From: Lolium rigidum
Taxonomy: Eukaryota; Streptophyta; Magnoliopsida; Poales; Poaceae
NCBI RefSeq assembly: GCF_022539505.1
Contig: NC_061509.1
Span: 208,034,254 to 208,098,253 of the forward strand
Length of the DNA: 64,000 nt
Direction of reading: 5' to 3'
Shown here one piece after another: positions 13,851 to 46,770 of this stretch. Each line of letters begins with the position of its first letter. Position 1 is the first letter of the stretch. The notes beneath the pieces were generated by a model. That model was not told the origin of the DNA. It did not search any database and saw only the letters and a program-made list of their open reading frames with translations. Position numbers and translations under genes: made by a program.

Positions 13851-13970
13851 GGCCGGATTCCCAGTGATTCCGGAATTTTCCAGAACCCCGGATAATCCGG
13901 CCCCAGGCCACCCGGAATATCCGGCCCGGCCGGATTATCCGCCCTAAGATAGGGCCGGATTATCCGGCCT
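13851..13970 (+). repeat. Palindrome cluster upstream of accessory ORF (A)
   Basis: At least four copies or variants of GGCCGGATTATCCGGCC, the same motif that fills the LTR upstream of TATA, placed about 210 bp before the accessory ORF micro-exon. No TATA box is visible between it and the ATG; the leader is C/T-rich. Confidence 0.85.
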
Positions 13971-14180
13971 GGGCAGACCTTGAAAGGGTTGAGGTCGAGG
14001 GCGCAAGGGGCAAAACGGTTCAGAACTTGCCCCCCACGCGCCTCTCTCCTCTTTCTCCTCTCAAGGCCGCCGGATCTCCTCCTCCTCGCCGGAGACGCTC
14101 CATCCGCCCCCTCTCGAAGTTCTTGGGTGGATCGGGTGGATCTCCTCCCTAGCTACCTTCTCCTCCAAGCGGTTTCCACA

Positions 14181-15988
14181 ATGGATGTGGGTATGATTCA
14201 CAATCTCTATCCCTAGATGTTGTGTTTTATATGTGCTATTTTCTTGGTGGAATTGGTGTCTAGTTGTTCCAAATCGTGTGTAGTGTACTCCTCTTGCATG
14301 CTATGAGGCCGATCTAGTCTTAGACATGTTTTTGATTGGAAATCTGCACATCTCGAAGGGCCGGATTATCCGCCCCCCGAGCCGGCCGGATTATCCGGCC
14401 CGGCCGGATTATCCGCCCCCAGGGGACCCCGGATTATCCGGCCTGGAGCTTCATCGCCGCTGCAGTTTGCTTCAATCTATCATGTCTAGATTTGTACCGA
14501 CTTATTTGCATGCTTCTCGAGTATATTACCATATCTTTCATGACTCATGAGCATTACCTTTCCTTTGCTACCCGCCTTTGCTTCTCACAGGTGGTGCTTC
14601 TCGGGGTGGTCGGAGACGCTCAAGGCATGATCGTTCAAGTGACGAGTTTGCAACCAATGCACCTCGCAAGTCCGTCTCCTCAAGGCGGAAGAACAAGGAA
14701 GTGAGGGAGAACTACAAGACCATGGACCCAGTCTCCTATTCCGCTATTCGCATGAACAACTGGTATGAAGATGTTCCAAGGGATGAAGAGATTGAGGGCA
14801 GGAGATTCTGGTGTATTGAGCAGGAATTCATCTACAAGGACATATATGAGCCCATGAAGAAGCTGAGACCCATGCAAGCCATTGATGTGGACATTCTGAC
14901 TGAAAACAATCACTTTGAAGATGCCATCTGGGTAGCTGGAAGGTTGGGTTTGCATGATATCATGAAGATTCAATGTGACTATAGCCCAGATTTGGTGGAG
15001 CAATTCTTTGCCACTTTGGCGATCAAGAAAGATGAGGAACACACTATGGAATGGATGACTGGCTCCTCACACTGCAGTGCCACTCTTCGCCAGTTTGCTG
15101 GTTTTCTTGGAGTTCCTGTTGAAGGGGGTCGTCGTCTTCATGGACCACAACCAATAGATAAGAATGCTCTTGCGCAGCTCTATACCTCAGCTGGGAAAAT
15201 TGGTTATACTAAGGGGCTGCTTACTATATACAATCAGCTGCTTCGCTTCTTTCGGGCAACCATTTGCCCAAGTGGTGGTAACAATGATGCTATCCGAGGA
15301 GTCCTTGTGAACCTTATGCACCTCAGCTATAAGTGTGCCCGTGATGGAAATGAGGATCGGAGCTTCACTATTGATATCATGGATTTTATCTTCCATGAGA
15401 TCCATGATGCCATGGTCTCCCGGACCTCCATACCCTATGCTCCCTACATCCAGCTTCTCATCAACAACACTGTGGCTGTGGTTGGTGAAGATTTGAGTGG
15501 GTACCCTTTGGTGAAGCACCATGTCAAGAAGGCCTACAAGGTTAAGCCAGTTTCTTCAGTCGTTCCTGCTCCGGACTCCTTCATGGGAGATGCTCGTTCT
15601 AGTGGTTTTGCTCCTGCTCGTCATCAAGATGTCCCAGCCTATGAGGAAGCAAGTGACCCGGCTTAGTTGGTTCCGGCGCTATGTCCTTTGCATGAATGTT
15701 GAGATCCATAAGGAGAACTATGCTGCTAGCCGAGAGCGTGCTGAGATTAAGCATACTCAGGCGGTTATTCTTCACAAGCTTAGTGGTGAACAAGGACCCC
15801 CGCCTCAGCCTCCAGCTCACCAGGGTTACAGTGGTTGGCACTCAGCACAGGTTCCATGGAGTGATATTGATGATTGCCTTCAAAGGTCCAACACCTCTCG
15901 CCGCTCTCCGGATGCACCTGACACTGATGAGGAAGAAGAAGAAGAGGAAGTGCCATACGAGTCCGATGATGATGATGCCTCCGAGTGA
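14181..15988 (+). pseudogene. Copia A accessory (env-position) ORF, spliced, frameshifted
   Basis: Proposed exon 1 is 14181-14190 (ATG, two codons, one G), followed by a donor GTATGA at 14191 and acceptor CTTCTCACAG at 14590. Exon 2 continues in frame from 14591 to a TAG at 15664-15666. The C-terminal part (about 107 residues) continues in the next frame to 15988, so one frameshift near 15640-15666 splits the gene. Product would be about 465 residues: a basic Arg/Ser-rich N-terminus, a globular middle (F-F-A-T-L...W-M-T-G, then I-M-D-F-I-F-H-E-I-H-D), and an acidic Asp/Glu tail. The middle is clearly related to the minus-strand copy at 44572-46469. It resembles the plant 'putative transposon protein' (Transposase_32-like) family; that is a judgement by eye. 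No signal peptide or membrane segment, so it does not look like an envelope protein. Confidence 0.7.
14358..14443 (+). repeat. Palindrome cluster inside accessory ORF intron (A)
   Basis: Four copies or variants of the GGCCGGATTATCCGGCC motif lie inside the proposed 400-bp intron (14191-14590). Confidence 0.85.
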
Positions 15989-16037
15989 TTCTCATGGGAC
16001 GTGTAGCATCGCGCTTGTCCCCTTTTGGCGTCTCGAT

Positions 16038-16053
16038 GCCAAAGGGGGAGAAG
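16038..16053 (+). promoter_or_regulatory. Internal purine tract (Copia A)
   Basis: GCCAAAGGGGGAGAAG, 50 bp after the accessory ORF stop and about 490 bp before the 3' LTR. The same tract is found at the same distance from the stop in Copia B (44508-44523, minus). It could be a second plus-strand priming site; the role is inferred. Confidence 0.6.
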
Positions 16054-16517
16054 TGTTCTATTAGGATTCTCCGGGATTTGCATGGTTTGGGCACAAGCAT
16101 ATGCGTTTATCATTCTTATGTTGCTTGTGTTTCCCTTTAGTTGAACTATTTGGTTTGTTTGTGTGCCGTTCAAAACTATGTGCTATGTGGTGTGAGACAT
16201 TGTTATGGTTTTCGGATTTCTATTTGTTGAGATCAAGGATATTACATTGTGTGTGATGCTATATCTCCGCATTATATATCTACACATGGGTATGATTTCT
16301 TGCTTCCTATCTCAACTTCATATGTGTCAATGTCTTTTGTTAGAGCTCATGTTGGATATCTCTTGTGTTGAGGCACCATACCCCTATGTGTTGTGTATTT
16401 GTATTCAAATGCAAATTACTTATATGCACACATGTAGGGGGAGTGCCTCTATGTTTTGCCATCATGCTTGTCTCTATAGTGATTCCTTTGCAAATCCGTA
16501 TATTGTCATCAAACACC

Positions 16518-16531
16518 AAAAAGGGGGAGAT
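16518..16531 (+). promoter_or_regulatory. 3' polypurine tract of Copia A
   Basis: AAAAAGGGGGAGAT directly before the 3' LTR. This is the expected plus-strand primer for reverse transcription. Confidence 0.88.
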
Positions 16532-17916
16532 TGAAAGAACATCTCTCACATTATGTTTTGTGTGTTTGATGTCAATACATGTGATACACTAATGTTTGAT
16601 TAAGTGGTACAGGGATTACATAGATATTTATCCATGTGTGTTGGATTTGATCGTGTGTCAAAAGGATTCAGAAAAAGGTTGGTCAGGCCGGATAATCCGG
16701 GCCGGATATTCTTGAAATATCCGGCCCCCTGTTTTTTTTTGGCTAAGTCTTCGAGGAAATGTGGCTCAGTATGGGGGCCGGACATTTGCCCGGATAATGT
16801 CCCGGTATTGTACCAGGGCCGGATTATCCGGGCCGGATATTTTGGAAATATCCGGCCCCCCTGTTTTTGGCTAAGTCTTCGAGGAAATGTGGCTCAGTAT
16901 GGGGGCCGGACATTTGCCCGGATAATGTCCCGGTATTGTACCAGGGCCGGATTATCCGGGCCGGATATTTTGGAAATATCCGGCCCCCCCCCGTTTTTGG
17001 CTAAGGACTGGAAGAAAAGCTTCTCTGGCATGGGGCCGGACTTTTGGCCGGATAATGTCACGGTTTTGCCCCGAAGGCCGGATTATCCGGGGGGACGGAT
17101 TATCCGGCCCTTACTTAGGGCGGATTATCCGGCCCCCCGGAAGCAGCAACGGCTCAATTTTGGGAGGGGGTATAAATACCCCCCTTCTTCTACCTTGGTT
17201 GCTTGCTCAATCATTACACAAGAAATCTGTCAAGCCACCTCCATTAGAGCCACCTCAAGAAAGTCAAGATTTGCAAGATCTCCTTCCTCCCCCAACCAAA
17301 GCTCTTGATCTTTGGGGATTCGAAGGAGAAGACACCGATCTACATCCTCACCGAAGCGTTCTTCATTTCCCCCTCTCTTGTTTGAGGGATCTCATGCTAG
17401 TGTTCCTATTTGGTTCCCTAGTTGATTTGTTGTTGATGTGTTGTTGTTGATTGTTGTATTGTTACAGATTTGGGAGCCTCCAATTTGGTTGTGGATGTGT
17501 GCCCCAAGAACTTTGTAAAGGCCCGGTTTCCGCCTCGAGGAAATCCCTTAGTGGAAGTGGGCTAGGCCTTCGTGGCGTTGCTCACCGGAGATCTGAGTGA
17601 AGCCTTCGTGGCTGTTGGTTTGGCTTGCGTAGCAACCACACTCCTCCAAACGTAGACGTACCTTCTTGCAAAGGAAGGGAACTACGGGAATCATCTCCGT
17701 GTCATCGCGTGCTACACTCTCGGTTACCTCTATCCCACTCTATCTACTATTGCGTAGCTATACCTTGCTTAGTTGATATCCTTGTCATATAGGTAAATTA
17801 ACTTAGTTGCATATCTAGAGAATTTACCTTTCGTGTCAAGCCTAAATTGAAAAAGAACTAAAAATTGGTTAGCACCTATTCACCCCCCCCTCTAGGTGCG
17901 GCATACGATCCTTTCA
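16532..17916 (+). repeat. 3' LTR of Copia A
   Basis: 1385 bp, TGAAAGAACA to CTTTCA, followed by TSD GTTCC (17917-17921). It carries the palindrome units at about 16687-17139 and TATAAATA at 17171-17178. Differences from the 5' LTR include a longer T run near 16730 and shorter G and C runs. Confidence 0.95.
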
Positions 17917-18402
17917 GTTCCCGCGGGCGTGAGCAGGGGCGCGTTGGTCAGTACTCGCCGAGGCGAGTCTAGTGGTGGCAGCGCCACCCCCTAATGGTCG
18001 CCGGAGCGGCGGTGGCGGTGATGCCCGACGGCGACGCTCACAGGCAAACTATGCGGCGAGGCTACGATGGCCTAGGGAGCAAGGCGAGCATGCCAGGGAG
18101 TTCAGCGGCTCACCATGAGGACGTAAAGCTTGACGGCGAGAGCAATGGCGGTCGGCATCGCCGGATTTCACCGTGTCGGTGTCGGAGAAGATGGGGTCGA
18201 CGGCGAGGCTACGGCTCGCCCCAGCTCGATTCCGCTTGCAGGTAGAGCAAGTCGAGGACGGCGATGCTGCTGGTGTCCACGGCGAAGCTCGGGGAGGTCC
18301 CTACCGGCGGCGATAGCCGGGGACTGTACGGGCTAGGGTTTCGGTTTGGGCGGAAATTGAGCAGAGAGAGAGAAGAACTCGGGCCAGTGCTTGTCACAAA
18401 GC

Positions 18403-18410
18403 TTTTATAG
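18403..18410 (-). promoter_or_regulatory. TATA box of the Gypsy LTR
   Basis: CTATAAAAGC on the minus strand, followed about 30 bp downstream by a GC-rich leader with a CT/GA stretch. The position, about 2.46 kb inside the LTR start, fits a U3/R border. Predicted from sequence only. Confidence 0.5.
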
Positions 18411-20868
18411 GGCGCAGGAGCAAGCCTCGTCACAACGCCGGTGAAGGAGAGGGCGCCAGCGGCCAGGAGAATCGAAGCACGGCTTCGTGCTGGCCTCCAG
18501 TACACGGAGAGGATGAGGACGAGCTCGTCCTCGATATTTTTAGACGAAGGGGTATTGGGCTGGCTTTGGGCTGCGGTTTGGGCCGAGTTGGTGGACTCCT
18601 GCTGGGCCAGTTGTTGGGCTGCTACGGTCCAGTAAGGTCCAGGTAAGCCTCCTTTTCTATTTTCTCTTTTCTCGTTTTTTATTTCATTTAATTCTGTTTT
18701 ATAATTCTGTTCTAATTCAAATTTAACTCATATAATACCATGCAGGTATTTAGAGTATTTGGATTTCATTAGGACTATTAAAAGGATAAGTGTATTACTC
18801 CATTGTTGTTGAACAAACATATATGAGAACCTTATTGCAATTTTGATTTAGACAAGAATTTAAGTATTCATTTTAATTTCCTTTTTATTTTGGAATACCA
18901 CTCCCTTTTGGAATGGTTAGAGTTAATAATTATACAACAAGTGTTTTAGAAGATTTTATTAGGACTTGATCTCTTTATTGAGAATTTAATTCATTTGCAT
19001 ATGATTTTATGTGAACACTCCTTTATTAAGGTCTTGTATGGTTTATTAAAATCCTATTTCAAGGTTAGCACTATTATCATATTTTAATAGTACCTTGAAA
19101 TATAGATTCTACTCTCCCCATGGTTTGGTTTAGTAAAAAGGATAATTGGTTGATCACCTCACATGGTTTTAATTATAGGATTTAGCTAGTGAGAAATTCT
19201 AAGGTTCTAATTATATTCATCTACTAGCAAATGGTTTAACTCTTAATTATGGCCTAGGTTTTAATTGTGATCACCCAAGTGATACACACCAATAATTGAG
19301 ATATGGTTTTAGGGTTTTACTTGGGATCATCAAATAATTCACAAGTTAGTTTGAGATATGGCAAAGGTTCTATATGTTATTTATCACCACATTAGTTTAG
19401 CTAGGGTTGCTCTTCCTCACCACTCATAGGATGGTTCAATCAATATCATTGAGATTGATATAAAGGTTGAACTATACAAAGGTTTGTTATTAGTCATTTG
19501 TTTCTCCAAATAATATATTAGAAATGGGTTTAGGTTTACTAATAGTTCCCCTATGATTTTATGTGCTGGTTTATATCTTCTTAACCTAATAGGATTTAAT
19601 TTATGGCTTACTCTTCTATTTCTCCAAAGCATAATCATGGCATTATCATGAACAACTTGTTTATAATATATCTACCTCAAGTTCTTAGGTTTTATGATCA
19701 TCACTCAATTTATAATGATCAAGGTTTGAATTCCTAGGGATCTCTCATTAAATGGGTTCTCACTTCCATGATCAAGCATTGTCTAGATTAATCAAGGTAT
19801 AGCACTTCTATTTGACTTTCTAGGACATGCATATTATGGTTGTCTCAATAATTTGTACCCCAGAAGAATTGTTTGAGATATACACTTAGAGTTATTCTTA
19901 ATCAATGATGATATGATCATCTGGTTATATGGATAGTTCTCTTCCTTACTTTATCAATTCATGGATATGGTATTATTTCATGTAATATTAGGTTATCTCA
20001 CCCCTCCAAGGGAAATGGTTTACAACCTAATACTTTAGTTCAATTGTTGTCCTTTATTCTTTAATAGTTAAAGCTTGGGTTAGTAGAAATGGTCTCTCTT
20101 ATTTTTGGGAATGTCTTCAATGCTAACTTAAGTTTATTCTCCAAAGATAATGATGTGGTCACCAATACTTATAGTTAACAGAAATGGGTTCTCTCTCTAA
20201 GGATTGTCTAGATTAACATCCTAGGTTTTCTCTGAAAGATGATGATTTGATTACATGTATGTATATCCAAAGTTTAACTCAAGGTTTGTTAATGCTTCTC
20301 TAATAATTATAATAGAACTCTCACCTCTCTAGGTTTGGTGCTTAACTATTTGGAATAGAGAAGAATATTTATTCCTGGGGTGGATCTTCTTGTTATAATT
20401 CCAATGTTGAAGTGGAATGAATACCATGAGGTTTCATGGTAGGATCATAGATAGTTTAAGACATGGAGAAGATAAGTGAAGAATGGTTTCTCCATTTTAC
20501 TGTTACTTGATTTGCAATTGAAGTGATGTTCATATGCTATGACAGGGATTACCATATTATAATCTTTTATAAGATGAAGCAATTGATCATTGAGTAAGGT
20601 GTTGTTGTGTTGATTATTAGTTCCATTTGATCTAACCCCTTAGATCAAATCATCTCTTCCCAAAACAAGGTTTTATCAAAGGTCACATTGAGGTTTATAG
20701 CACTTGACTTGATGAGCTACTTCAATTCCACCAAGGTCAAGTGAAACTTCGATTCATCGTGATCTGTTTTACTTTAAAGCGCGAAAATTACCCAGATTTT
20801 CTATGCATGAATGCAATGCACACATCTGTTTCCTCTATTTTTGTAACCCCATTACCTGGGATATTACA

Positions 20869-23800
20869 GTTTATCGCACAAAGAGGCTAACATATTGTAC
20901 CCAGTATGCAGCAGCGTCATCAACGTTTCAAAGGCGGTGGAGTTCTAAAGAAAAAGGCAAATAGCCAGAAATTAGGGGTCAAAAATAAATCCAGCAAAGG
21001 AAACTTTTATCGTACAAAGAGGCTGACATGTGGGACCCAGCCAGCAGCGTCCTCAACGTTTCTAAGGTGGCAGGCAATGGAAAAAAGGCAAATAGCCGGA
21101 AATTAGGGGTCAAAAATAAATGCAACAATAGAAACTCTTATTGTTCATAGAGGCCGACATGTTGGACCCATGAGCCAGCAGGGCCCTCAACGTTTCAAAG
21201 GCGTCACGGGATCAAAAGAAAAGAACCAAGTAGTCATTAATTAGGTGTCAAAAATAAATCCAAGAAAGTAAATGTTTTACTTTTCATAGAGGCTATCATA
21301 TGGGACCCATGAGCCAGCAGCGTCCTCAACGTTTCTAAGGCGGCTGGGGATCGAAAAAAAAAGCGAAGTAGCCATTAATTAGAGGTCAACAATAAATCCA
21401 AGAAAAGAAATGTTTATTGTTCTTAGAGGCTGACATGTGGGAGCTATGCGCCAGTAGCGTCCTCATCGTTTCAAAGGCGGTCGGGGATCCAAAGAAAAAG
21501 GAAAATAGCCAGAAATCAGGGGTAAAAAAAAAATCCAAGAAAAGAAATATTATTGTTCATAGAGGCTGGCATGTGGGACCCATGAGCCAGCAGCGTCCAC
21601 AATTTCAAAGGCGGCACATGATCGAAAGAAAAAGGCAAGTGACCAAAAATCTGGGGGTAAAAAATCCAAGAAAAAAACTTTATTGTACATAGAGGATGAC
21701 ATGCGGGTCCCATGAGCCAACAACTTACTCGTCGTTTCAGAGGGCCGAGGCGGCATGAGATCGAAAGAAAAAGGAAAGTGACCAAATATCAGGAGCAAAA
21801 AATAATCCATGAAAAGAAACTTCATTGTACATAGAGGATGACATAGGGTCCCATGTTGTAGCAGCGGTCTGAACGTTTCAAAGACGACATGAGATCGAAA
21901 GAAAAAGGCAAGTGACCAAATATCAGGAGCCAAAAATAATCCAAGAAAAGAAACTTTATTGTACGTAGAGGATGACATGCGGGTCCCATTTTGCAGCAGC
22001 GGTCTCAACGTTTCCAAGGCGGCAGAGAACAAAAAGAAAAATGAAGTAGCCGGAAATCGGGGGTGAAAAAAATCCAAGAAGAAAGATTTCAATTGGGCTG
22101 CATCCGGACATCCGGGCTTTCGAACTATCCCGCTTGGCCTTTTGACTCGTACAATTTCAGCCCACTCCAAAACAGGAAAGTTCCGAATTTTCTAAAAAAC
22201 AGGAAAGTCCTATGCTTCGCAAAGACAAAAAAACAAGGAGATTCAACATATAAGTTTGTTTATGTAAAAATAAAGATTTAATTATCCGTTTGAAATAGCT
22301 CAGAGCGCAATACATTGTTTATTGTCTGCAAAATAATCAAGGTATCATATGTTTCTTGTACGGGTAGGCTGACATCGGGGACCCATGAGCCAACAAGCGT
22401 CGTCAATGTTTTAAAGGCAGCAGGGGATGGAAAGAAAAAATAAACCAAAAATCTGTTGGTAAAAAATCCAAGAAAAGAAACATTTTCGTTCTGAGAGGAT
22501 GACATGCGGGACCCATGAGGCAGCAGCATCCTCAGCATTTATTGTTCATAGAGGTTGACATGTGGGACCCGTGAGCCAGCGGCGTCCTCAACGTTTTAAA
22601 GGCTGCAGGTGATCGAAAGAAAAAATAAGCCAAAAATCGTTTGGTCAACAAAATCCAAGAAAATAAACATTTACCGTTCCGAGAGGATGACATGCGGGAC
22701 CCATGAGGAAGCAGCATCCTCAACGATTCCAAGGCGGCAGGGGAAATATCCAGAAATTAATTAGGGGTTCAAAATAAATCCATCAAAGGAAACTTTTATT
22801 GTTCATAGAGGATGACATGTGGGACCGACCTGCCAACAGCGTCCTCATCGTTTCAGAGGGGGCAGGAGATCAAAAGAAAAAGGCAAATAGCCAGAAATTA
22901 GGGGTAAAAAATAACTCCAAGAAAGGAAACTTTTATTGTTCGTAGAGGATGACATGCGGGACCCATGAGCCAGCAGCTTACTCAACGTTTCAAAGGCGGC
23001 ATGAGATCGAAAGAAAAAGGCAAGTGACAAAATATCGGGAGCCAAAGATAATCCAAGAAAAGAAACTTTATTGTACGTAGAGGATGACATGCGGGTCCCA
23101 TTTAGCAACGAGCGGTCTCAACGTCTCAAATGCGGCTTGAGATCAAAAGAAAAAGAAAGTTGATTGTACATAGAGGATGACATGCGGGTCCCATGAGTCA
23201 GCAGCTTACCCAACGTTTCCAAGGCGGCAGGGGATCAAAAGAAAAAGGAAATAGCCAAAAATCGGAGGGTGAAAAAAATTTAAAGAAAATAAACTTTTAT
23301 AGCACATAGAGGATGACATGCGGGTCCCATGAGCGAGCAGGTTCCTCAACGTTTCAAACGTGGCATGAGATCGAAAGAAAAAGGCAAGTGACCAAATATG
23401 AGGAGCCAAAAATAATTCAAGAAAAGAAAGTTTTATAGTACATAGAGGATGACATGCGGGTCCCTTGAGCCAGCAGCTTACTCGACGTTTCAAAGTGGGC
23501 AGGGGATCAAAAGAAAAAGGTAAGCCAAAAATCAGCGGGTGAAAAAAAATCCAACAAAGGAAACTTTTATAGCACATAGAGGATGACATGCGGGTCCCAT
23601 GAGCCAAGCAGGTTCCTCAACGTTTCAAACGTGGCATGAGATCGAAAGAAAAAGGCAAGTGACCAAATATGAGGAGCCAAAAATAATTCAAGAAAAGAAA
23701 GTTTTATAGTACATAGAGGATGACATGCGGGTCCCATTTAGCAAGCAGCGGTATCACCGTTTGAGAGGCGGCAGGGGATCGAAAGAAAAAGGTAAGTGAC

Positions 23801-25294
23801 CAAATATGAGGTGCCAAAAATAATTCAAGAAAAGAAAGTTTTATAGTGCATAGAGGATGACATGCGGGTCCCAGGTAGCAGCAGCGGTATCACCGTTTGA
23901 GAGGCGGCAGGGGATCGAAAGAAAAAGGCAAGTGACCAAATTTGAGGTGCCAAAAAAACTCCAAGAAAAGAAAGTTTTATAGTACATAGAGGATGACATG
24001 TGGGTCCCATTTAGCAACAGCGGTATCACCGTTTGAGAGGCGGCAGGGATCGAAAGAAAAAGGTAAGTGACCAAATATGAGGTGCCAAAAATAATTCAAG
24101 AAAAGAAAGTTTTATAGTGCATAGAGGATGACATGCGGGTCCCGATTAGCAGCAAGCGGTATCACCGTTTGAGAGGCGGCAGGGGATCGAAAGAAAAAGG
24201 CAAGTGACCAAATTTGAGGTGCCAAAAAAACTCCAAGAAAAGAAAGTTTTATAGTACATAGAGGATGACATGCGGGTCCCATTTAGCAGCAGCGGTATCA
24301 CCGTTTGAGAGGCGGCAGGGGATCGAAAGAAAAAGGCAAGTGACCAAATATGAGGTGCCAAAAATAATTCAAGAAAAGAAAGTTTTATAGTGCATAGAGG
24401 ATGACATGCGGGTCCCGGTTAGCAGCAGCGGTATCACCGTTTGAGAGGCGGCAGGGGATCGAAAGAAAAAGGCAAGTGACCAAATTTGAGGTGCCAAAAA
24501 AACTCCAAGAAAAGAAAGTTTTATAGTACATAGAGGATGACATGCGAGTCCCATTTAGCAGCAGCGGTATCACCGTTTGAGAGGCGGCAGGGATCGAAAG
24601 AAAAAGGCAAGTGACCAAATATGAGGTGCCAAAAATAATTCAAGAAAAGAAAGTTTTATAGTGCATAGAGGATGACATGCGGGTCCCAGTTAGCAGCAGC
24701 GGTATCACCGTTTGAGAGGCGGCAGGGGATCGAAAGAAAAAGGCAAGTGACCAAATTTGAGGTGCCAAAAAAACTCCAAGAAAAGAAAGTTGATTGCACA
24801 TAGAGGATGACATGCGGGTCCCATTTAGCAAGACAGCGGTCTCAACGTTTCCAAGGCGGCAAGGGATCAAAAGAAAAAGGAAGTAGCCGAAATCGGGGGT
24901 CAAAAAAATCCAAGAATAGAAAGAATTTTGGTTCATAGAGGATGACATGCGGGACCCATGATCCCGCATCGTAAACGGCTCGATCGGAGAACGTTGAACG
25001 AGATGGCGCGATCGAGAAAAAAACAATGCCGGAGAGGCTGCCATCCGGGCCCTACATCCCTCGGCGGTGCGGATTTGCGTTGACTCGGCCGGCGAACCCG
25101 AGAATTCGCGATGCACCACGTCCCGGGCCACCATACGCGACGTTTTGGCCGCTTTCGTCGGGCTAGGTGGCCTCAAAAACGAGAAAAAAAAGTTTTGACA
25201 TGCACCACGGAGGGACCAAAATCGTCGGCCATGGTACACCAGCAACCACGGCGCGACTTCAACTTCGTCGGCCATGGCAACTTTTCTTGTAGTG
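20869..25294. mobile_element. CACTA transposon end 1, truncated by Gypsy
   Basis: The right terminus reads CTTTTCTTGTAGTG (reverse complement CACTACAAGAAAAG), a standard CACTA inverted repeat, at 25281-25294. The next three bases AAG fit a 3-bp target duplication in the Copia C LTR. Inside it, 24960-25280 is GC-rich with GTCGGCCATGG-type subterminal motifs, and 20872-24960 is a repeat array. The left part is lost to the Gypsy insertion at 20868. No transposase is present. Both TIRs cannot be checked here. Confidence 0.75.
20872..24960. repeat. About 136-bp tandem array, about 30 units
   Basis: Units carry GAGGATGACATGCGGGTCCC, an AACGTTT or CACCGTTT core and GATCGAAAGAAAAAGG. Starts measured at 23853, 23989, 24124, 24261, 24397, 24533, 24668, 24803 and 24938 give spacings of 135-137 bp. 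Units before about 23700 are more divergent and vary in length. From about 23850 two alternating variants form a dimer of about 272 bp. Minus-strand open frames here are repeat artefacts with recurring motifs, not genes. Confidence 0.92.
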
Positions 25295-25297
25295 AAG

Positions 25298-26021
25298 CTC
25301 AAGAACCTTACACATAGAAACACTAAGAAGCAATAAGGATATGCAAAGTATGCAAAGGATTGAGCTCCCTAAGACGATGTGATCAAGTTACCCAACCGAA
25401 AGCCCCTCTTGATAGTGCGGCTATCTATCCTATATCCGGTCTCCCATCAACCACCATGAGACCGGTAAAAGGAAAACCTATCAAGGTCATACCTTTGCCT
25501 TGCGCATCCCGCTTGATCTTGATGATAACTCTTCAAGCTCTACACAAGCCGGAATGCCTCACTTGATCATTGTTGCTTTGTGAAGACTCACAAATGCTCC
25601 CCCATACATTATGATGGGAAAGCTCCATTGATGCACGTCTTCACATGTCCATTATCACCAAATGGACGGCAAGCTTCAAGCATGTGATTCACTCAAGATG
25701 CTCATCTTGAACTTGCCCAACTCAACCTTGTATCTTCTCATACTCACATAATATAGAGCATGGCTAATATTGAGTTCCACATAAGAACTCCATCTTCATT
25801 TCTTCTTCTTGATCATATCACATATATATCTTCATACCGATGATCTTGATGCCAATACACAAGATATACCTTTATCTTCATGGCATCCATACTTGAATCC
25901 AACATATAGAGTACAAGTAGTACCTATGGAGTATTCCTTCATATAAACTCAATGAAAACATTAGTCCATAGGGGTTGTCATTAATTATCAAAACCACACA
26001 TAGGGGCAATGTACCCTTACA
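25298..26021 (-). mobile_element. Copia C LTR fragment
   Basis: Homologous to 50946-51420 plus 58021-58367, the solo LTR of family C. On the minus strand it starts TGTAAGGGTAC at 26021. The other end is cut by CACTA 1 at 25294. The bases CTGAT (26022-26026) next to its start are a possible target duplication and belong to the 340-bp repeat unit. It carries only the outer U3 part and no coding sequence. Confidence 0.8.
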
Positions 26022-29000: not shown

Positions 29001-29286
29001 TGTGCCGACGGTGTCACCATCGGCATAGCTTGACAGTTCACGACCGTGACGTTACAGTGGAGTTGGCTGCGCCGATGGTGCGGCGGCCGATGGCCATCGT
29101 ACAGTCGTCGGTGTAGACGTGTGCCGACAGTGCTCTGATGTGCCGACGGTGCCTGCGCAGTCCCCGACGCGAAGTGTGCCGACGAAGCTACACCGATGGT
29201 CACCGTCGGCACAGCCTGTGCCGACGGTTATTCACGCTGTGCCGACGGTGCGGGGCGTCTCGGCGTAGTGCGTGTCTCCCGTAGTG
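26022..29286. mobile_element. CACTA transposon end 2 with 340-bp array
   Basis: The right end is CCCGTAGTG at 29278-29286 (reverse complement CACTACGGG), followed by GCT as possible TSD. Region 28975-29260 holds many copies and inversions of GTGCCGACGGT / ACCGTCGGCAC, the subterminal repeats typical of grass CACTA (Caspar-like) elements. The left side is the tandem array, which is interrupted by the Copia C LTR. No transposase is seen. The end lies only 365 bp from the protease stop codon. Confidence 0.75.
26024..28943. repeat. About 340-bp tandem array, about 8.6 units
   Basis: GATCCTTGTTAAAACAT recurs at 26024, 26366, 26706, 27053, 27395, 27737, 28077, 28417 and 28757; spacings are 340-347 bp. 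The 347-bp unit has an expanded C run near 26930. Units are very similar, indicating recent amplification or gene conversion. The 60-75-residue open frames on both strands repeat with the unit and are not genes. Confidence 0.95.
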
Positions 29287-32957: not shown

Positions 32958-32994
32958 TCCAGAAGGTTTATAATTTTTAGGGTTTCTCTATGTT

Positions 32995-37179: not shown

Positions 37180-38767
37180 TGAAAGAGCAAGGTATATACC
37201 CCGTGTTTTGTGTGTTTGATATAAACACTTGAATGAATTTTACCGTGTGCATAGATTGTCTTCGATAGATTTGCAGGTGCACGGTGTCCTCGTTGAACAC
37301 GTCATGATCGAAAGACCTAAGCGTAGCTTATAGGTTTTCCGGTTTTGTGTGTGTGTCGCGAGGTGACGTGGTTGGAGAGATAAAGAGAAAAACTGCAGAC
37401 TATGCCTAACCGGTACTACCGGTACCAGTAGCGGTAGTACCGCTACCCTACTGGTACCGCCCTGTGGTACCACTCTGGGTTTACACTGAATCGCCCCACA
37501 GAGCGACTTGGGGTACCTCTACAGTACCATGAGCGGAAGTACCACTCGCAAGCGGTAGTTCCGCCGTGGTTGTAACATCCCAAATTTTCAAACAAAGAAG
37601 AAAATGAATTTCCTTTTTCCAAAAATTGGAGCCAACAAAAACTTTAATTCAATTGAGTTTGGTGCATAGTGCTCCTACACAATTGTTGTGGATTTTGCTA
37701 AGATGCTTGGGTGAAGTATTTTGAAATGTTTTCTAAACCCTAAGCCTCTCAAAACCAAAGAGGAACTTTTAGAAAGAAAACAAAATAAAGGGTGAGGGAT
37801 ATGTGGGCTTATGGCCATTTCTCTAATAATGGCCTATGCCCTATTTACTTTACCCAAATGGTGAAACCCTCCATCCACCCAACCAACCTCTTTTGAACCC
37901 AAAACAATGATCCTTTGGATCAAAGAGAAAGCAAGAAAAAAATTTGAGAAATCACAAAAACCCTCACATATGGTTTTGGCCATTTTTGAAAATCTTTAAC
38001 CTAGGCCATTTTGGCTTGTGCCATTGGTTGGAGAATGTTACTAAACACTTAAGAACACCTTTGGAATCAAAGAAACTCAAATCAAATCAAATTTGAAATC
38101 AATTTGAGCTCACATGAGATAATGGTCAAATCTGCCATTTATATCATGATGCCTACTTTGAGCCTCTGTATTAAGAGATTTTCAAACCAAACAATTCCAA
38201 CTCTTTGCACCTCATCCAAGACCACATCAAGGTGAACAACTTTGATAAAGACCACCCCTGCAAATTTATGCTGAATCCAAAGTTATGCTCAAACAAAGTT
38301 GGAACTTTTTAACAGATTCAAGATGGTGCACTTTTTGAAATTTCTCAAACCAGCTTCATTTTGCACACCACCACCAACATATGCCCAATATTATTTGAAT
38401 CACCTCCACCAAATTTTTTGGCAAAATTCAAAAGTGAAGCTCTTGCGGCCATTTCATCAAATACCTGGTGGGCAGCAGACAACAAAACACAAACCACTAT
38501 TTAAAATAGTGTTTGGCCTAACTTGGTTCCCCCATTGGTCACACATAGTGCCCTAGCATATCCTCTAGCCATGCCATGCCTTGCCATGCTCACCATGGCA
38601 AAAGTGTCTCCCTATGTCATTGCATATGTCACACACTTTGGCCATGATCTTTTGTGCATGATCTACCCCTCCCTAGCCTTGCCAACCATGTCACACACAC
38701 TAGCCTCACCTCACTTGAGATAGCATTGCCCTCCTAGACCAAGAAGAATGCATAGAGGATCCATGCC

Positions 38768-38945
38768 TTGGACATGCCATTCCCTTGGTCCCCTCCAACA
38801 TCTTGCCCCCACTTTGACACCTTGGACATGCCATTCCCTTGGTCCCCTCCAACATCTTGCCCCCACTTTGACACCTTGGACATGCCATTCCCTTGGTCCC
38901 CTCCAACATCTTTCCCCCACTTTGACACATTGGACATGCCATTCC
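38768..38945. repeat. 54-bp tandem repeat in the solo LTR
   Basis: GACATGCCATTCCC recurs at 38771, 38825, 38879 and 38933, giving exact 54-bp spacing, just upstream of the LTR TATA box. The period is a multiple of 3, so all frames stay open and produce false repeated ORFs on both strands. Confidence 0.92.
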
Positions 38946-38973
38946 CATGGCCCTCTCCTCTCCCTCCTTGAAC

Positions 38974-38983
38974 CTATAAATAG
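38974..38983 (+). promoter_or_regulatory. TATA box of the Gypsy solo LTR
   Basis: CTATAAATAG about 30 bp after the 54-bp repeats. Confidence 0.65.
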
Positions 38984-41900
38984 AGCACTTCCCCCACTCC
39001 AACTCTTCACACTACTTCACCCCTCTCCTCTCCCTGATCCTCCTCAAGCAATCCCTCGTCCCAATTTCATCCACCGAGCCCCAATCGATCGCCGGAGCGC
39101 CGCCAGTACTGCTGCAAGATCGCCGGAGCTAGGAGCCGCCCCAGGAGATGCCATCTGTACCTGGAGCCTCGCCACCCTCGACAACGCCGCTGCGCACCCT
39201 CACCGACGACCTCCGACTGCCGGTGAGCTCGCCGGACCCCAACCCTCGCCGCCAGTAACCCTGGTTCTCGTCGGAGACGACGACGAACCTGAGCCGCTCG
39301 ATCCCCTTCTAATCGTGCGGCCACCGTTTCGTGTACCGATTCGGTTCATTAAGTGTCGCTGACACGTAGGTCCCATTGTCAGGCGGCCCGCTGCGTGCGA
39401 GACGCGCTAGCTGGGCCGGCCCAACTCGTTTCCCCTCGCCTAGCCAAACTTCGTTTCCCGCTAAGCCCAATGCATTTGAATTCGGATTATTTCATTTCAA
39501 TCAAATTACATACTGGTACTTTACTAAATTTTGAATAAAACAAAATCTACAAATCCATTTGGAGTGAAACCAATTTTGGGTGAAAGCTAATGAATAGATC
39601 TACCCAACCCCACGGGTCTCAAACCCTAATTCATCTTAGATCATCTGCAACAAAAATGGCAAGGCAGTAACTTTTCAAATTTCAAATAATTATTAAAAAT
39701 CAACCATAAATGATTTGAGTTGATTCCAACTCTCATAAATCACTTTTCATATTGTCTAATTGATTATGTAAAATTATGCCATGGTTTCTTCATAAGATCA
39801 TGAGCTAGATTCAAATAATGGCTATGTAGTCATTTCTAGCTCAATTAAACCATTTCCAATTTTTGAATTTCAAACCTATGAGGTGTAGCACCTCATTTAA
39901 ATCACCTTCCCAAGTAAAGTAAAATAATGTGATGACCTTAGTTGCATGGTCTCATACTTGCTTACTTGAGGATCTTAAATCAATGAAGTATTTAAATTGC
40001 ATGAGATGATGAATCTCATTTAAATCTTTTTCCCAAATGATAAATATGAAGTGTTGACTTTGTTTAACATGATTTCATAATTCTTATTTGAGGAAATTAA
40101 ATCTTAGCAATGTTCAAATGAGATAGGATTACTTTCAAATAAAATAAATAGAAAACCCTAGTTAGTATTAACTCATGTAAATCTCAACTAAGGAAATCTA
40201 CTTCTCCAAACCAAACAAAGAAAACCCTAGCATAATGTTGAGTAATATAGAGGATGACGCTAGATCATCTTGAGTGAGCCATTAAGGCTAAACTAGTCCA
40301 CTTAAGTATTGTTTGGTGATCGTATCCTCGTATTCGTTTATAGACGCTAGTACCGGAGACTATAAGGAGGAGGAGGTCTTCTACCAAGAGGAAGAAGAAG
40401 AAGAACACTTTGATCAATACACCACTCAAGGCAAGCTAATATTCTTGCAAGTTACCCTAGTGCAAAGCTCTACAAGAGCAAGGCACCATTACATATTACT
40501 TTATGCTTAATGACCCCATCCCAAGTTTTTAACTTACAAGTTTTTGACTTTGGTTTATCAAAGTTTATTCTTGATTCATGATTTACTTGATCTAGATATA
40601 GATTAGTACAAGAGCATCACACTTAGCCTAGAGAGCTACAAGTTAAATAGCACCCCTCATGACTAGTTGCTAGTGCTAAACTAAATTTTGGCTACTCTAG
40701 AAGGGAAACATATGAATCAATGACTTTGAAAACCTTGGAATGAGGAGTCATTCTATTGAGAGATTTTGAAGGGGAATATGACTTGTGAATCAAATGGTGA
40801 ATTTTACCAAAAAATGATGGTTGGGTTCGGATGCGATACCATTCCAATTCTTAAGTACCCCCACAATACCTGAATCTGGGTAAGGCTTAACTGGAAACTT
40901 ATGTATTTTAGTATGGGTTCCCTCTGAACAAGCGTCATAGGGGTTATGCCGAGGCTGCCTCCGTTGAGAGTGAAATGACATGAAATAAGGTGAATGTCCT
41001 ACCCAAGCCCTGTGCAGTTCCCAGGCTGACGGTTTGTCTTCACTGGGAGGCCAAGCTCATGGGGAGAGGTGCCTATACTAGGGTATGTAAATGAAAGGTT
41101 ATGATTGGTAGTTCGCGCACTGAGTGCGATAAATCAGGGCCAGTTACCCCTGACGGACTATTGCAATTATTGTGGCACAAGTGTACGACCTCTGCAGAGT
41201 GTAAACCTATTCGGATAGCCGCGTCCGCGATCATGGACAGTTGGAAAGGCCATACTATTCCGTCATCAAAACTTTTCAAAATATGATATGTGACTTGTGA
41301 CTTGAAAGAGAAATGTGACTTTGACTTTGAATCACAACTGAGTTGTGGGAATGACACTAATGTTCCCACTTGAGTTAGTTAGACAACTAAAGAGTCTTTT
41401 ATTACCAAAATGCTTACGAAATAAAACTGGCTTTATGCAAATGAACCTAGAGCTTAGAACCCCCTTATTATAGTGGATAGTGCTTACACTAGTATTAGTT
41501 TGCGAGTACTTTGAAGTACTCATGGCTGTGTCCCTGGCTATTCAAATGGCCAGACAATGAAGATGAGCCCCAGTACCAGGATGAAGGACAGCAGGGCGTC
41601 TACGACAACTAGGACCACTCCTGACGTCAACAGTTGCCTGTGGAGCAGATGGATCGCAACCGCTACTTCGCTTCCGCTATGTGTTTTGTAATTGGATCTC
41701 TAGATCCACTATGTTGTAATACTGGATCATGTGATCCCTTGATGTAAGACAATTATGGTTTGTAATGAATGATGTTCTGTGATATCAACCTATTATGTCT
41801 CGCAAAAACAATATTCCTGGGATTGCGATGTATGGCATAATAGCATCTAGACTTAAAAATCCGGGTGTTGACAGTGGTACCGCTTAGGTACCATAAGACG

Positions 41901-42103
41901 AGTTACGGCACTACCGCTCTGGTACAGCTGAGGTATCGGATGGAGTCCGGGGCTCATGGAGTCCCTAGCGGTACCACCAGCGGTACCGCCAGCGGTACTA
42001 CCGCTGTGAGCCCACGTGGTGAATCTGTGGAGTGCATTCGAACCCAGAGCGGTACTACCGCTTGCCCAAGCGGTGGCACATAACGGTTGGATTTGGAGGG
42101 ACC

Positions 42104-42111
42104 TATAAAAA
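42104..42111 (+). promoter_or_regulatory. TATA box of Copia B LTR
   Basis: TATAAAAA in the context GGGACCTATAAAAAGGCCC, which can fold into a short hairpin around the TATA. Confidence 0.7.
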
Positions 42112-42816
42112 GGCCCTTTCTTCCCCAACTCGATTTTATCTCTTTTCTCTCTCTCTCCTCCATTGTTGCTGAGCTCAAACCTTGAGGATCTCCCCACCTA
42201 CCCAACCAATCTTGCTTAAACTTTGTGGAGTGGTGGAGGAGGCCCCGATCTATAGTTCTACCAAGAGAGAAGTCACCAATGCGTGCTAGTCCTTAGTGTA
42301 TCTTGGAGTTAGGGTTCCTATGGTGGGATCTTGGAGGATGTGCTCCTATGGAGGCTAGTTTGGAGTTGTGCTAGCCCCATAGGGTGTTGGGAGCCTCCGG
42401 TGTTGTGGAGCTCGCCCCAACCTTGTGAAGGAACCGCCGCCTCAATCGGCTACTTAGTGGAGAAGGGGAAGATCCTTTGTGGAGCTTTCTCGAGGAAGAA
42501 GGTGAGGCCTTCCTTCGTGGTGTGGCCATCTAGCCTTCGTGGCTAGCACCTCCTCAACGCAGACGTACTCCCTCTTGTGGGAGGAACTGCGGGAAACAAA
42601 CCTCACCTCATCTCCGCCCCCCCCCGGTTGTCCCGCTCCCTAACTTTACTATCTTGTTTGGTTCCTTTACTTGTTGCACTAGCCTAGGATCATAATAGGA
42701 ACACCTCTACCACTAAAGCTATCACCTTTACTTCCACATCGCATAAAAACTGACAAAGGCATAAAAAATGTGTAGCGCCCATTCACCCCCCTCTTGTTCG
42801 CTACGATCCATTCAAT

Positions 42817-42828
42817 TGGTATCAGAGC
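42817..42828 (+). promoter_or_regulatory. Primer-binding site, initiator tRNA-Met (Copia B)
   Basis: TGGTATCAGAGC two bases after the LTR end. Confidence 0.92.
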
Positions 42829-42862
42829 AAGGTTTTCTTGCTCGGGCTTTACCTCCTAAGAA

Positions 42863-44007
42863 ATGGCCGAACAAGAGACGGTTGAGAATGGGTCCCTTCC
42901 CGGTGAGCAACAACCTCTAGCATCTACCATCAATAGCACAACGGCTACGTTCGATGACCTCAAGAAATTGGAGTCATCCATCGTTAGCCAAATGAAGTCT
43001 ATGATGATGGAGTTTGTTGCTCCAAAATCAACCCCCACCGTAGATCCTAAGGCAAGTGCCGAGGATCCCCCACCAAAAGCTAATCCATTTCCTCTTGTTG
43101 GTTTTGTCGCTCAATCAACAAAAGACCCGCAAAAGGAAGGGCTTGGGGAGACCGGAACTTCATCAAAAGGGAAGGATGAGCCACCGGTTGCAGAACGTTT
43201 AGGGGGTAATCATGCGGTGCCACCACCAAGTGATTACACCATAAATGTTCCTATTCCTATGCCACATATCTTGTCTCATGGTTCACCACCGCTACTTGAA
43301 TCCAGTAGTTTTGAAAATTGGCAATTCTTAATGCGTTCTCATGTGCGCAGTGCTTCTACCGAGCTTTGGCGCATCATCGAGGAGGGTTATTCACCACGAG
43401 ACCCGAAGCACTTGACAAGAAGAGAAGTGGTGGATGACCAACTCAACGCCACCTCCATCAACATGATTCACATGGCCGTCACGCCCAAGGACCGCACTCA
43501 TATTCGCTCGCTCAAGACCACCAAAGAAGCATGGGATAAACTCGATAAGCTCTTCCTCGGAAATGAGAGCATTCAAAACTCTCGTTTCGATGAAGTGAAC
43601 AACATGGCCGAAAACTTCGTCATGAATGAGGGAGAATCGCCCGAAGAGATGTACCGACGCCTCATCGCTATTGCCGTACAAATGCAAGATCTTGGGGCAA
43701 CGTTTGTGGATGGCCATTGGATCAAGAGAAAGTTCTACAACGCTTTCCTCCCTTATAAGGAAGTGAATTTGACGGCCATCCGCCAAAACGCCTCCTTCCG
43801 TGCTATGACATCCGATGAAGTTCTTAGCGAAGTCATCGCTTTGGACATCTCCAAGAAGAATAAGGAAGATCCTGTTGCTCGCGCTCACAACACCCGCAAG
43901 CCCAACCTCGCGTTGAAGATGAAGGAGCATGAAGCTAGTGAAAGTGATGAGGATCCCATTGAGTGGGGTCCGGATGATCTCAAGACCAACTATCATGAAC
44001 ACATGGC
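42863..44007 (+). pseudogene. gag: Copia B Gag, truncated by insertion
   Basis: Starts 35 bp after the primer site, as in Copia A. The first about 381 residues align with Copia A Gag: F-x-N-W-Q-F, then S-H-V-R-S-A-S-T-E-L-W-R-I-I, then T-T-K-E-A-W-D-K-L and N-Y-H-E-H-M-A. The UBN2-type domain is complete. The frame is cut at 44008 by a new LTR (TSD candidate ATGGC at 44003-44007) before the zinc knuckle; the frame runs 19 bp into the LTR before a stop. The remainder is not found on this strand. Confidence 0.88.
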
Positions 44008-44159
44008 TGATGACCCACAAGTATAGGGGGTGTATCGTAGTACTTTCGATAAATAAGAGTGTCGAACCCAACGAGGAGCAGAAGGTGTTGACAAGCAGTT
44101 TCGATGAAGGATTCACTGTAAATGCTCACGAGACAAGTATTCGGGGGTTTTGATATAGC
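44008..44159 (+). mobile_element. Start of an LTR inserted in Copia B gag
   Basis: Begins TGATGACCCACAAGTATAGG inside the gag frame. This LTR start is one I recognise as frequent in large pooid genomes. It runs into the gap, so the rest and the second TSD are unknown. Confidence 0.65.
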
Positions 44160-44259
44160 NNNNNNNNNNNNNNNNNNNNNNNNNNNNNNNNNNNNNNNNN
44201 NNNNNNNNNNNNNNNNNNNNNNNNNNNNNNNNNNNNNNNNNNNNNNNNNNNNNNNNNNN
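44160..44259. other. Assembly gap, 100 N
   Basis: Exactly 100 N, a conventional placeholder of unknown true size between scaffolded contigs. Confidence 0.99.
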
Positions 44260-44507
44260 AAAACCCAAACTCCCAATAAATGCCTCCATAGAATTGGTGT
44301 AGCCAACAATAAGATAATCAACGAAAACCAATATAGGCTACCACAAATAGGTCTTATTACAAACCGGGGAGATCCACGAATAGAGTAGCAAGCATACAAA
44401 TAAGTTCTCGAATAACTAGGGGTAAAACATTGTGCCAAGGCCAAAGAACCAAAAAGAAACGCCGAGCCCTTGGCATCCCCATGCAAATACCCGTCCTAAT
44501 AGATCAA

Positions 44508-44523
44508 CTTCTCCCCCTTTGGC
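44508..44523 (-). promoter_or_regulatory. Internal purine tract (Copia B)
   Basis: GCCAAAGGGGGAGAAG on the minus strand, 49 bp after the accessory ORF stop; identical to Copia A 16038-16053. Confidence 0.6.
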
Positions 44524-44571
44524 ATCGGAACACCAAAAAGGGAGAAGAAGAATGCTAACGCCCCAAGGAGA

Positions 44572-46469
44572 TCACTCATCATCATCCTCATCCTCGTCTT
44601 CATCCTCCTCTTCCTCCTCGTCTTCCTCCTCGTCATCACCTTGCATCTCCTCATCCTCCTCGTCCTCCTCCTCGTCCTCCTCATCGTCGTCTTCTTCTTC
44701 AACTTGGCCCTTGCCATGAGGTGGTGGAGAGGGACGAATGATGCGCTCGGGGTTGGATTCTTCGGAGCTCGTCCAAGTGTGCTTGGATTTCCACTCACCG
44801 GGAGGGGTGATGTTGTCCTCGGAGCCCTCGGAGACGGGGAGACCCATGTGTCTCATCATCGCCTTTTGGCGTTGACGAATCTTCTTGTTGTCGTGGTGGG
44901 CTTGGTACATCTTGTCTTGGAGGTCCTCCTTGAAGCAAAAGGACTTCTTGAGGCGAGCGGTGAGCTTGGCGAAGAGGCCTTTGGTCTTGACGAAGGTGGG
45001 CACAAAGTAAGATTCATCACTATCGGACTCCTCCTCTTCCTTGTCCTTGGGGGCATTCTTGCTATACCTTCGGAGAGAGTGCTTCTTGACAGCGGGGCTG
45101 CGCTCCTTGTGAATGGTGATGGGGTAGCATTGGGCTAGGAGGTCTCCACGGCCGGCCTCATCCCACTTGAGGCAAATGAGCCTCATGATGTACGGTGCAT
45201 ATTGGGGGAGCTTGCGGAGGAAAGCACAATCTTGCATCTCATGCAAAATGTAGTCCATGATATCCAATTGCTTGCCGCTGCCCTTCAACTCGTGAGTGCG
45301 CACAAGGAGGTTCACAAGAAAGCCATGCACTTCATCGTGGTTGGTGTGCTTGGGGTTGATGGTGTTGCGGTAGATGCGATTCATGATGTCGTAAGCGGGG
45401 AGGAGGTCATAAGCACTTCCGCACATCATTCTCTCGGGGATATAGAGGTTGGCCATCTTGTCCTTGCTCATGGGCTTGTGTTGAAGATGGATTCGGAAGT
45501 AGTTGTTGTCGTTGTTGGGGAGTTCATAGCCTAGGCCTCTTGCAAACTCATCCCAAGTGGCCTCCATCACGTGCTCCCTTGTCATCCACTTGATAGAACG
45601 GGCACCGGACTCTTCTTGGACAAACACCGCAGTGGCATAGAATTGGCATATCACCTCCTTGGAGAAGTTATGGGTGAAGGTAATCAAAGGGATAAGTCCT
45701 TGTTCTTCACAAATATCAAGAGCCTCAACAAAGTATTCGGGCTTGGAGTTGAGCTTGGCCATGTTGATAGAGAATTGGGGGCAACAATTGAACCCATTGG
45801 CCCCATATATGTCATTGTAGATCCTCTCTTGGTTTGAGTGGTAAAAGAAGTTGTTGGGGCATAACCGCGGGTTCCTTGGCACCAAATAGTGGTTGACCCT
45901 CCTTATCTCCAAGAACTTGGACTTGTTGAGAGCACTCATAAGCTTTTGGGGACGCGAGGTGGTCCTCTTGCTAGCTGCCGCTGCTGCTGCCCTTTGACGC
46001 TTGGTGGTCCTTGGCGAGACAATCTCCTCTTGCTCTTCTTGCTCTTGGGAACGAGGACGACGAGATGAGGGTTTCTTGACCCTTCTTGCGCCGTTATTGG
46101 ATGGACCTGTGAAACAACATAGGTTGGGGAGGGAATAGGGGTTAAGTGCACAAGCCTTGGAGTTAAAGATCAAAAAGGACACTAACAAGCAACAAGAGTG
46201 AAACAACTTAGAGCGGTAGTACCGCTCGAACCGGTAGTACCGCTCATGACGAGCGATACTACCGCTCGAGCTCAGCACAACTAGATCTATGTCAAGATAC
46301 ATGGCATTGAAGTTCATAGTCTCACACAATGTTGCTAGCTAGTATCCCTTTACATGGAGAGGCTTCCTAGGAGGGTTCTCCACCACAAACTCCAACAAAC
46401 CCTAACCTATGCATCTAGGGAATCCAAAAAACCCTAGAGAGAGAGGTTCGAGCTCATACCGGAGGACAT
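44572..46469 (-). CDS. Copia B accessory (env-position) ORF, spliced, intact
   Basis: Proposed join of exon 1 (46469-46460: ATG, two codons, one G) and exon 2 (46106-44572), with donor GTATGA at 46459 and acceptor TTTCACAG ending at 46107; the intron is 353 bp. The spliced product is about 514 residues with no frameshift. N-terminus: basic, R-R-x-R and an Ala run. Middle: homologous to Copia A (F-Y-A-T...W-M-T-R; I-M-D-Y-I-L-H-E-M-Q-D; Y-A-P-Y-I). Then a Lys-rich helical part and a C-terminal run of about 50 Asp/Glu residues. No signal peptide or membrane helix. Function unknown; an acidic, nuclear-type DNA- or chromatin-binding protein is my inference. Without splicing, the open frame extends upstream from exon 2 to 46329, but that part is not conserved with Copia A. 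Confidence 0.72.
46211..46269 (-). repeat. Palindrome cluster in accessory ORF intron (B)
   Basis: GAGCGGTAGTACCGCTC and two variants within the proposed intron, matching the position of the Copia A intron cluster. Confidence 0.85.
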
Positions 46470-46654
46470 GGTGGAGGAGAAGGTAGGGAAGCTTCTCCAC
46501 TGAGGAGATTTGGCCGGGGATGGCCGGAGGAGGAGATCGGGGACGGTCTCCTCGAGGTCTTCGAGCTTGGAGGCGCCTTTGACTTGTGGTGGGTGGGGAA
46601 AAGTGGGGGATTTGGAAGAATCCGTCCCACCCGGTACCTTAAGTCAAGGGTGCA

Positions 46655-46770
46655 AGCGGTAGTACCGCTCGTATGAGCGGTAGTGTCGCTTACCGGTACT
46701 TGCCCGGTACCTCGGGCGGTAGTACCGCTCCAGGGCGGTAGTACCGGCCTGAGGACCGGTAGTACCGGTC
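46655..46770 (-). repeat. Palindrome cluster upstream of accessory ORF (B)
   Basis: Four or more copies of GCGGTAGTACCGC or CCGGTAGTACCGG, about 190 bp upstream of the micro-exon ATG in the minus direction. Region 46770-47290 between this and pol has no gene. Confidence 0.85.

What the first reader, a model, noticed from the sequence alone, without database searches (positions are those of the whole stretch)
13851..46770. Family-specific palindromes shared by LTR enhancer, accessory-ORF upstream region and intron
Copia A uses GGCCGGATTATCCGGCC and Copia B uses GAGCGGTAGTACCGCTC. In both, the motif is clustered in the same three places: directly upstream of the LTR TATA box (A 5804-6255; B 37409-37570 and 41874-42075), about 200 bp upstream of the accessory ORF start (A 13851-13970; B 46655-46770), and within its intron (A 14358-14443; B 46211-46269). 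The layout is kept while the motif changes. That is the pattern expected if the accessory protein, or a fast-evolving host factor, binds the motif. A parallel is the VANC proteins of Arabidopsis VANDAL transposons, which bind short motifs amplified in their own family and reverse silencing. Function here is inference; the pattern is seen.
Basis: partly seen in the sequence, partly recalled or inferred. Interest (0 to 1): 0.9.

Follow-up and report, generated by a model that had tools for sequence, protein, structure and literature searches.

The report
Retrotransposon protein with matching palindromic sites
Copia retrotransposons in this ryegrass-like genome place family-specific palindromes at their LTR promoter and around their extra gene, and the extra protein is predicted to fold like VANC21, an Arabidopsis transposon protein known to bind short DNA motifs and undo silencing, so a gene long called 'envelope-like' may be a DNA-binding partner of those palindromes.

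Summary
The palindromes are real, far above chance and family-specific. Family A uses CGG-AT-W-AT-CCG, family B CGG-TA-S-TA-CCG, and a third LTR, C, CGG-TC-N-GA-CCG. A and B carry them at the LTR TATA box, upstream of the accessory gene and in its inferred intron.
Most of this is in print. Bousios et al. 2010 (PMC2829016) described this 'repeated motif' in Sirevirus LTRs and upstream of the envelope-like gene. Their Inga motif is family B's.
Best reading: the accessory gene encodes a VANC-fold protein that binds these palindromes at the LTR and at its own gene. Binding, anti-silencing and motif-protein co-variation across families are untested; the genome protein search did not complete.

The parts
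5650..17916 (+). Element A: Sirevirus-type Copia retrotransposon, 5' LTR 5650-7029, 3' LTR 16532-17916, 5-bp target duplication GTTCC on both sides; LTRs 98.7% identical; pol and accessory frames interrupted
5804..6249 (+). A 5' LTR palindrome cluster: 6 perfect cores CGGATWATCCG, partly amplified as a 128-bp tandem repeat (3.1 copies, 5804-6203); TATA box at 6286
13886..13969 (+). A cluster upstream of the accessory gene (3 perfect cores, 1 with one mismatch); 211 bases between it and the inferred ATG
14181..14190 (+). A accessory gene, inferred exon 1 (10 nt, ATG GAT GTG G); Lolium perenne gene model P0025 begins MDVGGASRGG, which supports the splice
14191..14590 (+). A accessory gene, inferred intron (GT...AG, 400 nt)
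14359..14443 (+). A intron palindrome cluster: 4 perfect cores in a 43-bp tandem pair
14591..15988 (+). A accessory gene exon 2, in two overlapping frames (14578-15666 and 15521-15988), so this copy is broken; weak Pfam PF20167 Transposase_32
16686..17134 (+). A 3' LTR palindrome cluster: 6 perfect cores
37180..42814 (+). B LTR (start approximate), interrupted by a nested insertion 37571-41873; then PBS (TTGGTATCAGAGC at 42816) and gag (42863-44026)
37409..37570 (+). B LTR cluster, left part (2 perfect cores, 1 with one mismatch)
41874..42063 (+). B LTR cluster, right part (2 perfect cores, 1 with one mismatch); TATA (CTATAAAAAGG, about 42104) about 40 bp further on
46654..46770 (-). B cluster upstream of the accessory gene (4 perfect cores); 184 bases between it and the inferred ATG
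46460..46469 (-). B accessory gene, inferred exon 1 (10 nt); splice by analogy with A, no gene model seen
46107..46459 (-). B accessory gene, inferred intron (GT...AG, 353 nt)
46211..46267 (-). B intron palindrome cluster (2 perfect cores, 1 with one mismatch)
44572..46106 (-). B accessory gene exon 2, open to an acidic C-terminal tail; weak PF20167
45064..45942 (-). [not shown]
49350..50950 (-). LTR-like stretch of a third family C (limits approximate, no partner LTR found): two perfect cores CGGTCNGACCG at 50411 and 50526, TATAAATAG at 50310; 49601-49726 is 77% identical to part of A's LTR

Best explanation
These are Sirevirus-type (SIRE/Maximus-lineage) Copia retrotransposons; I assign them by structure and motif, not by a reverse-transcriptase tree. 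Each family has its own dyad motif, CGG-XY-N-Y'X'-CCG, with two family-specific bases per half (AT in A, TA in B, TC in C). In A and B, clusters of the motif sit just upstream of the LTR TATA box, upstream of the accessory gene and inside that gene's first intron. I propose that the accessory ('envelope-like') gene is not an envelope. Its core is a VANC-type DNA-binding domain, usually with a basic N-terminus and an acidic C-terminus. The protein, perhaps as a dimer, binds its own family's dyads in all three places. In doing so it activates or de-silences the LTR promoter and, through the upstream and intron clusters, its own gene. Shown: the motifs, their layout and family specificity, their conservation in 15 further copies of A, and the fold match of the models. 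Inferred: DNA binding, its specificity, dimer binding, autoregulation and anti-silencing.
Confidence: 0.52

Rival explanations
1. Host transcription factors bind the dyads. The clusters are enhancers for the LTR promoter and for an internal promoter of the accessory gene, and the accessory protein does something else. Families differ because they use different host factors.
For: Bousios et al. proposed regulatory sites and an internal promoter for the gene, and matched the motifs mainly to stress-related sites in PLACE (PMC2829016). Elements lacking the gene keep LTR motifs but no linker copies, as expected if each cluster serves a promoter. TATA boxes follow the clusters in LTRs A, B and C.
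Against: Does not predict that the accessory protein has the VANC21 fold. Bousios et al. could not identify one common binding factor. No TATA box was seen between the upstream clusters and the inferred ATGs (by eye).
Confidence: 0.31
2. The clusters matter mainly as RNA or DNA hairpins: sources of small RNAs and targets of host silencing, or aids to recombination, with family identity kept by tandem duplication and gene conversion.
For: 5 of 5 clusters folded as RNA are far more stable than shuffles (z -3.6 to -7.7). Maize Sirevirus LTR palindromes are small-RNA hot spots (PMC5311732 and PMC10760457, passages). The A motif is amplified in tandem.
Against: A cluster of palindromes is expected to fold well. 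The exact core sequence is kept while the spacers of the same clusters have changed. Hairpins alone do not predict the placement at promoters or the fold match.
Confidence: 0.12
3. The accessory gene is a true envelope-like gene for cell-to-cell spread, and the palindromes merely drive it.
For: Historical naming (PMC2829016).
Against: No membrane-spanning stretch in 23 of 23 proteins (several are incomplete) and a VANC21-like core.
Confidence: 0.05

Closest known systems
Sirevirus repeated motif (RM), Bousios et al. 2010, PMC2829016
   Same: Palindromic, CGG-CCG core (12 of their 13 elements), one type per family, upstream of the LTR TATA box and upstream of the envelope-like gene; family B's motif equals the published Inga motif AGCGGTASTACCGCT
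   Different: Family A's AT type is not in their table of 13. I place the third cluster in an intron; [quoted passage not shown] They named no protein partner
VANC proteins of VANDAL (Mu-like) DNA transposons, Hosaka et al. 2017, PMC5735166; PDB 9lnj
   Same: Predicted fold of the core; family-specific short motifs amplified in noncoding parts, including the protein's own intron
   Different: Copia retrotransposon instead of Mu-like DNA transposon; palindromic instead of one-way motifs; no detected sequence similarity; function untested
PF20167 Transposase_32 / Athila accessory ORFs
   Same: 39 of 50 aligned accessory proteins match PF20167 at E up to 1; PMC11728184 reports partial PF20167 similarity and a nuclear signal in a sunflower Athila ORF (passages)
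   Different: Matches to the two window proteins are below Pfam's gathering score

Membership tests
Sirevirus RM-bearing elements | Palindromic motif with CGG-CCG core, repeated | tested here: met
Sirevirus RM-bearing elements | Cluster upstream of the LTR TATA box | tested here: met
Sirevirus RM-bearing elements | Further copies upstream of the envelope-like gene | tested here: met
   A and B; not examined for C, whose internal part is not in the window
Sirevirus genus | Place in the Sirevirus branch of the reverse-transcriptase tree | not tested
   No tree was built
VANC family | Fold of the VANC21 DNA-complex structure | tested here: met
   [not shown]
VANC family | Sequence domains DUF1985 / DUF287 | tested here: not met
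   50 proteins against Pfam at E up to 1, neither listed; no VANC chain by PDB sequence search at E up to 10. So it is not filed as a VANC family member
VANC family | Carried by a Mu-like DNA transposon | tested here: not met
   Carried by a Copia LTR retrotransposon
VANC family | Specific binding to the family's own motif | not testable with these tools
   -
VANC family | Loss of DNA methylation at the family's copies | not testable with these tools
   -
Retroviral-type envelope protein | Membrane-spanning segment | tested here: not met
   Highest 19-residue Kyte-Doolittle mean 1.56 in 23 proteins, some incomplete; threshold 1.6 recalled; signal peptide not tested

The most novel reading that the evidence does not exclude
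Sirevirus 'envelope-like' genes encode VANC-fold, sequence-specific anti-silencing proteins. Each family's two-base code inside CGG-XY-N-YX-CCG is its private address, read by its own protein at the LTR, at the gene's own promoter and in its intron. One protein-motif counter-silencing system would then serve both Mu-like DNA transposons and one of the largest retrotransposon lineages of grasses.
Probability: 0.4. Interest if true: 0.93.

Novelty: new variant of a known kind. Interest (0 to 1): 0.8.

Why it matters
Sireviruses make up about 21% of the maize genome (start of the abstract of PMC3599292, listing), yet the role of their extra gene and the factor behind their palindromes were open in the passages I read (PMC2829016). 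A VANC-like protein-motif pair would answer both questions at once, suggest how families multiply without de-silencing each other, and give a two-base recognition code that a simple binding assay can test.

Tried and rejected
Foldseek gave no significant match in PDB for either model or in the viral library for the A-type model. PDB sequence searches gave no credible relative. Scans of viral and prokaryote contigs for relatives: 31 and 153 pattern hits, none confirmed. A third homologue search with a mixed profile listed 37 proteins, none with a DUF1985 or DUF287 label, so no profile-profile test against VANC was possible. A host LBD factor was considered from memory as a CGG-CCG binder; a paper search gave nothing useful, so it stays a recalled idea. 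A 60-kb block chosen by coordinate alone (C3) had no hit to A's gag or pol or to 14 accessory proteins and no symmetric core; it works only as a negative control. Two 30-kb flanks of the window had no gag, pol or accessory hit; the left held one symmetric core and the right six, three of them TC type (21170, 21287 with N4, 21370). Comparing core and flank between the three tandem units of A's LTR (10, 11 and 10 of 11 against 108 of 117, 96 of 119, 90 of 119) is too small to decide anything.

Not done: the unbiased cross-family test of motif against protein tree; L001-L008 were fetched but not examined.

The resemblance of VANC21's YAGTATTAY (GTA-T-TAC when the last base is C) to family B's GTA-S-TAC is a lead only; family A does not share it.
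Full report
WHAT IS THERE. The window lies in a 2.44-Gb genome (G000:C2:208034254-208098253). The relatives of its accessory proteins that carry an organism name are from Lolium. Element A (5650-17916) is a Copia retrotransposon with LTRs 98.7% identical and a GTTCC target duplication. It carries gag, pol in two frames and a 3' accessory gene; the pol and accessory frames of this copy are interrupted. 'Element B' is two pieces on opposite strands of an assembly gap at 44160-44259: LTR-PBS-gag on the left, pol and accessory gene on the right. A third LTR-like stretch, C, lies on the minus strand at about 49.35-50.9 kb. I call A, B and C Sirevirus-type from structure and motif; no reverse-transcriptase tree was built.

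THE MOTIF. The three families differ only in the two bases next to CGG (and the centre base): 19 of 19 AT cores lie in A, 10 of 10 TA cores in B, 2 of 2 TC cores in C. The remaining three of the 34 symmetric cores are two CGGCCCGGCCG strings that overlap A units and one unrelated site. Perfect dyads are confined to the clusters; half-sites are not, and one B core with one mismatch lies elsewhere. In each LTR a TATA box follows the cluster (A 6286; B about 42104; C 50310). No TATA box is seen between the upstream cluster and the inferred ATG of either accessory gene (read by eye).

THE ACCESSORY GENE. A 10-nt first exon, an intron of 400 nt (A) or 353 nt (B) holding a palindrome cluster, and a long second exon are inferred. 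For A, the Lolium perenne protein P0025 begins MDVGGASRGG, exactly as the inferred splice predicts. For B the splice is by analogy. The proteins are 28% identical and match PF20167 weakly; of 50 aligned proteins 39 match it at E up to 1. In 23 of 23 proteins no membrane-spanning stretch was found; 20 of 23 have a net basic start and 21 of 23 a net acidic end (some are incomplete).

COPIES OF FAMILY A. The exact 17-mer occurs 1113 + 1071 times in the genome, the reversed control 0 + 0. In 16 loci picked through clustered hits, 16 of 16 have two groups of cores spaced as the upstream and intron clusters (in L013 the second is a single core), 15 of 16 also have cores further on, where the 3' LTR is expected, and every symmetric N5 core is AT or the overlapping CC string. 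In L010 only residues 303-468 of the accessory protein matched and in L009 only residues 3-53. Because the loci were chosen by motif, only the downstream cores and the absence of other types are independent outcomes. Across 16 copies (15 loci plus the window; L010 left out), column identity is 0.914 in cores, 0.828 in all other columns, 0.728 and 0.775 in the spacers of the two clusters, 0.823 in the leader, 0.874 in the rest of the intron and 0.918 in exon 1; 9 of 759 circular shifts of the core mask reached the observed core mean. CpGs are kept in 95% of other copies in cores (16 sites) and 71% outside (29 sites).

WHAT IS ALREADY KNOWN. Bousios et al. 2010 (section 9 and part 1 of section 15 read; passages) described this motif in 13 Sireviruses (12 with the CGG-CCG core), its place at the TATA box and upstream of the envelope-like gene, its family-specific form, and support for an internal promoter. 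Their Inga motif is family B's. They found no common binding factor. The VANC system is described in PMC5735166 (passages) and PMC10398659 (passages). Two sunflower papers discuss accessory or retrotransposon proteins and mention VANDAL or VANC by analogy, one of them reporting partial PF20167 similarity and a nuclear signal in an Athila ORF (passages). Searches combining VANC terms with Sirevirus, envelope-like, Transposase_32 or accessory ORFs (none found, 2 of 2 listed, 10 of 59 listed, 5 of 5 listed) showed no title or abstract start proposing that Sirevirus accessory proteins are VANC-like. The library lacks most subscription papers; I did not read the 2016 Genome Research paper on maize palindromes, and the 2022 EMBO Journal VANC paper is not held.

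READING. The layout is known. On checking I lowered this from 0.55, because the published link between the gene and the linker copies fits a host-factor promoter just as well; that rival rises to 0.31. Host-factor and hairpin explanations remain open; 5 of 5 clusters tested fold strongly as RNA. Elements without the gene but with LTR motifs, and elements with the gene but without motifs, are facts against a strict pairing.

Noticed in passing
window 49350-50950 (-) and L036 about 1170-1370: LTR-like stretch of a third family with CGGTCNGACCG dyads, the type published for Osr8 and Osr10. Three more TC-type cores lie about 21 kb right of the window; whether they sit in an LTR was not checked.
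   Followed up: partly
window 37571-41873: Nested insertion TGTAACATCCC...GTTGACA with direct repeat GTGGT splits the B LTR; it could be a solo LTR or a short element.
   Followed up: partly
window 44160-44259: 100-N assembly gap joins two Copia pieces of opposite orientation; possible scaffold orientation error.
   Followed up: no
window 20868-24968 and 26022-28884: Two large tandem arrays with periods of about 136 and about 340 bp.
   Followed up: no
window 29202-29228: Perfect palindrome with 13-bp arms, ACCGTCGGCACAGCCTGTGCCGACGGT, near a subtilase gene (29651-32005, -).
   Followed up: no
window 51426-52911 and 56550-58021: Direct repeat pair, 96% identical, perhaps LTRs of another element; part is related to an inverted copy at 59655-60038.
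   Followed up: no
window 46654-46770, 41993-42063 against VANC21 motif: Family B's core GTA-S-TAC resembles the VANC21 motif YAGTATTAY (GTA-T-TAC when the last base is C; motif); family A's does not.
   Followed up: no
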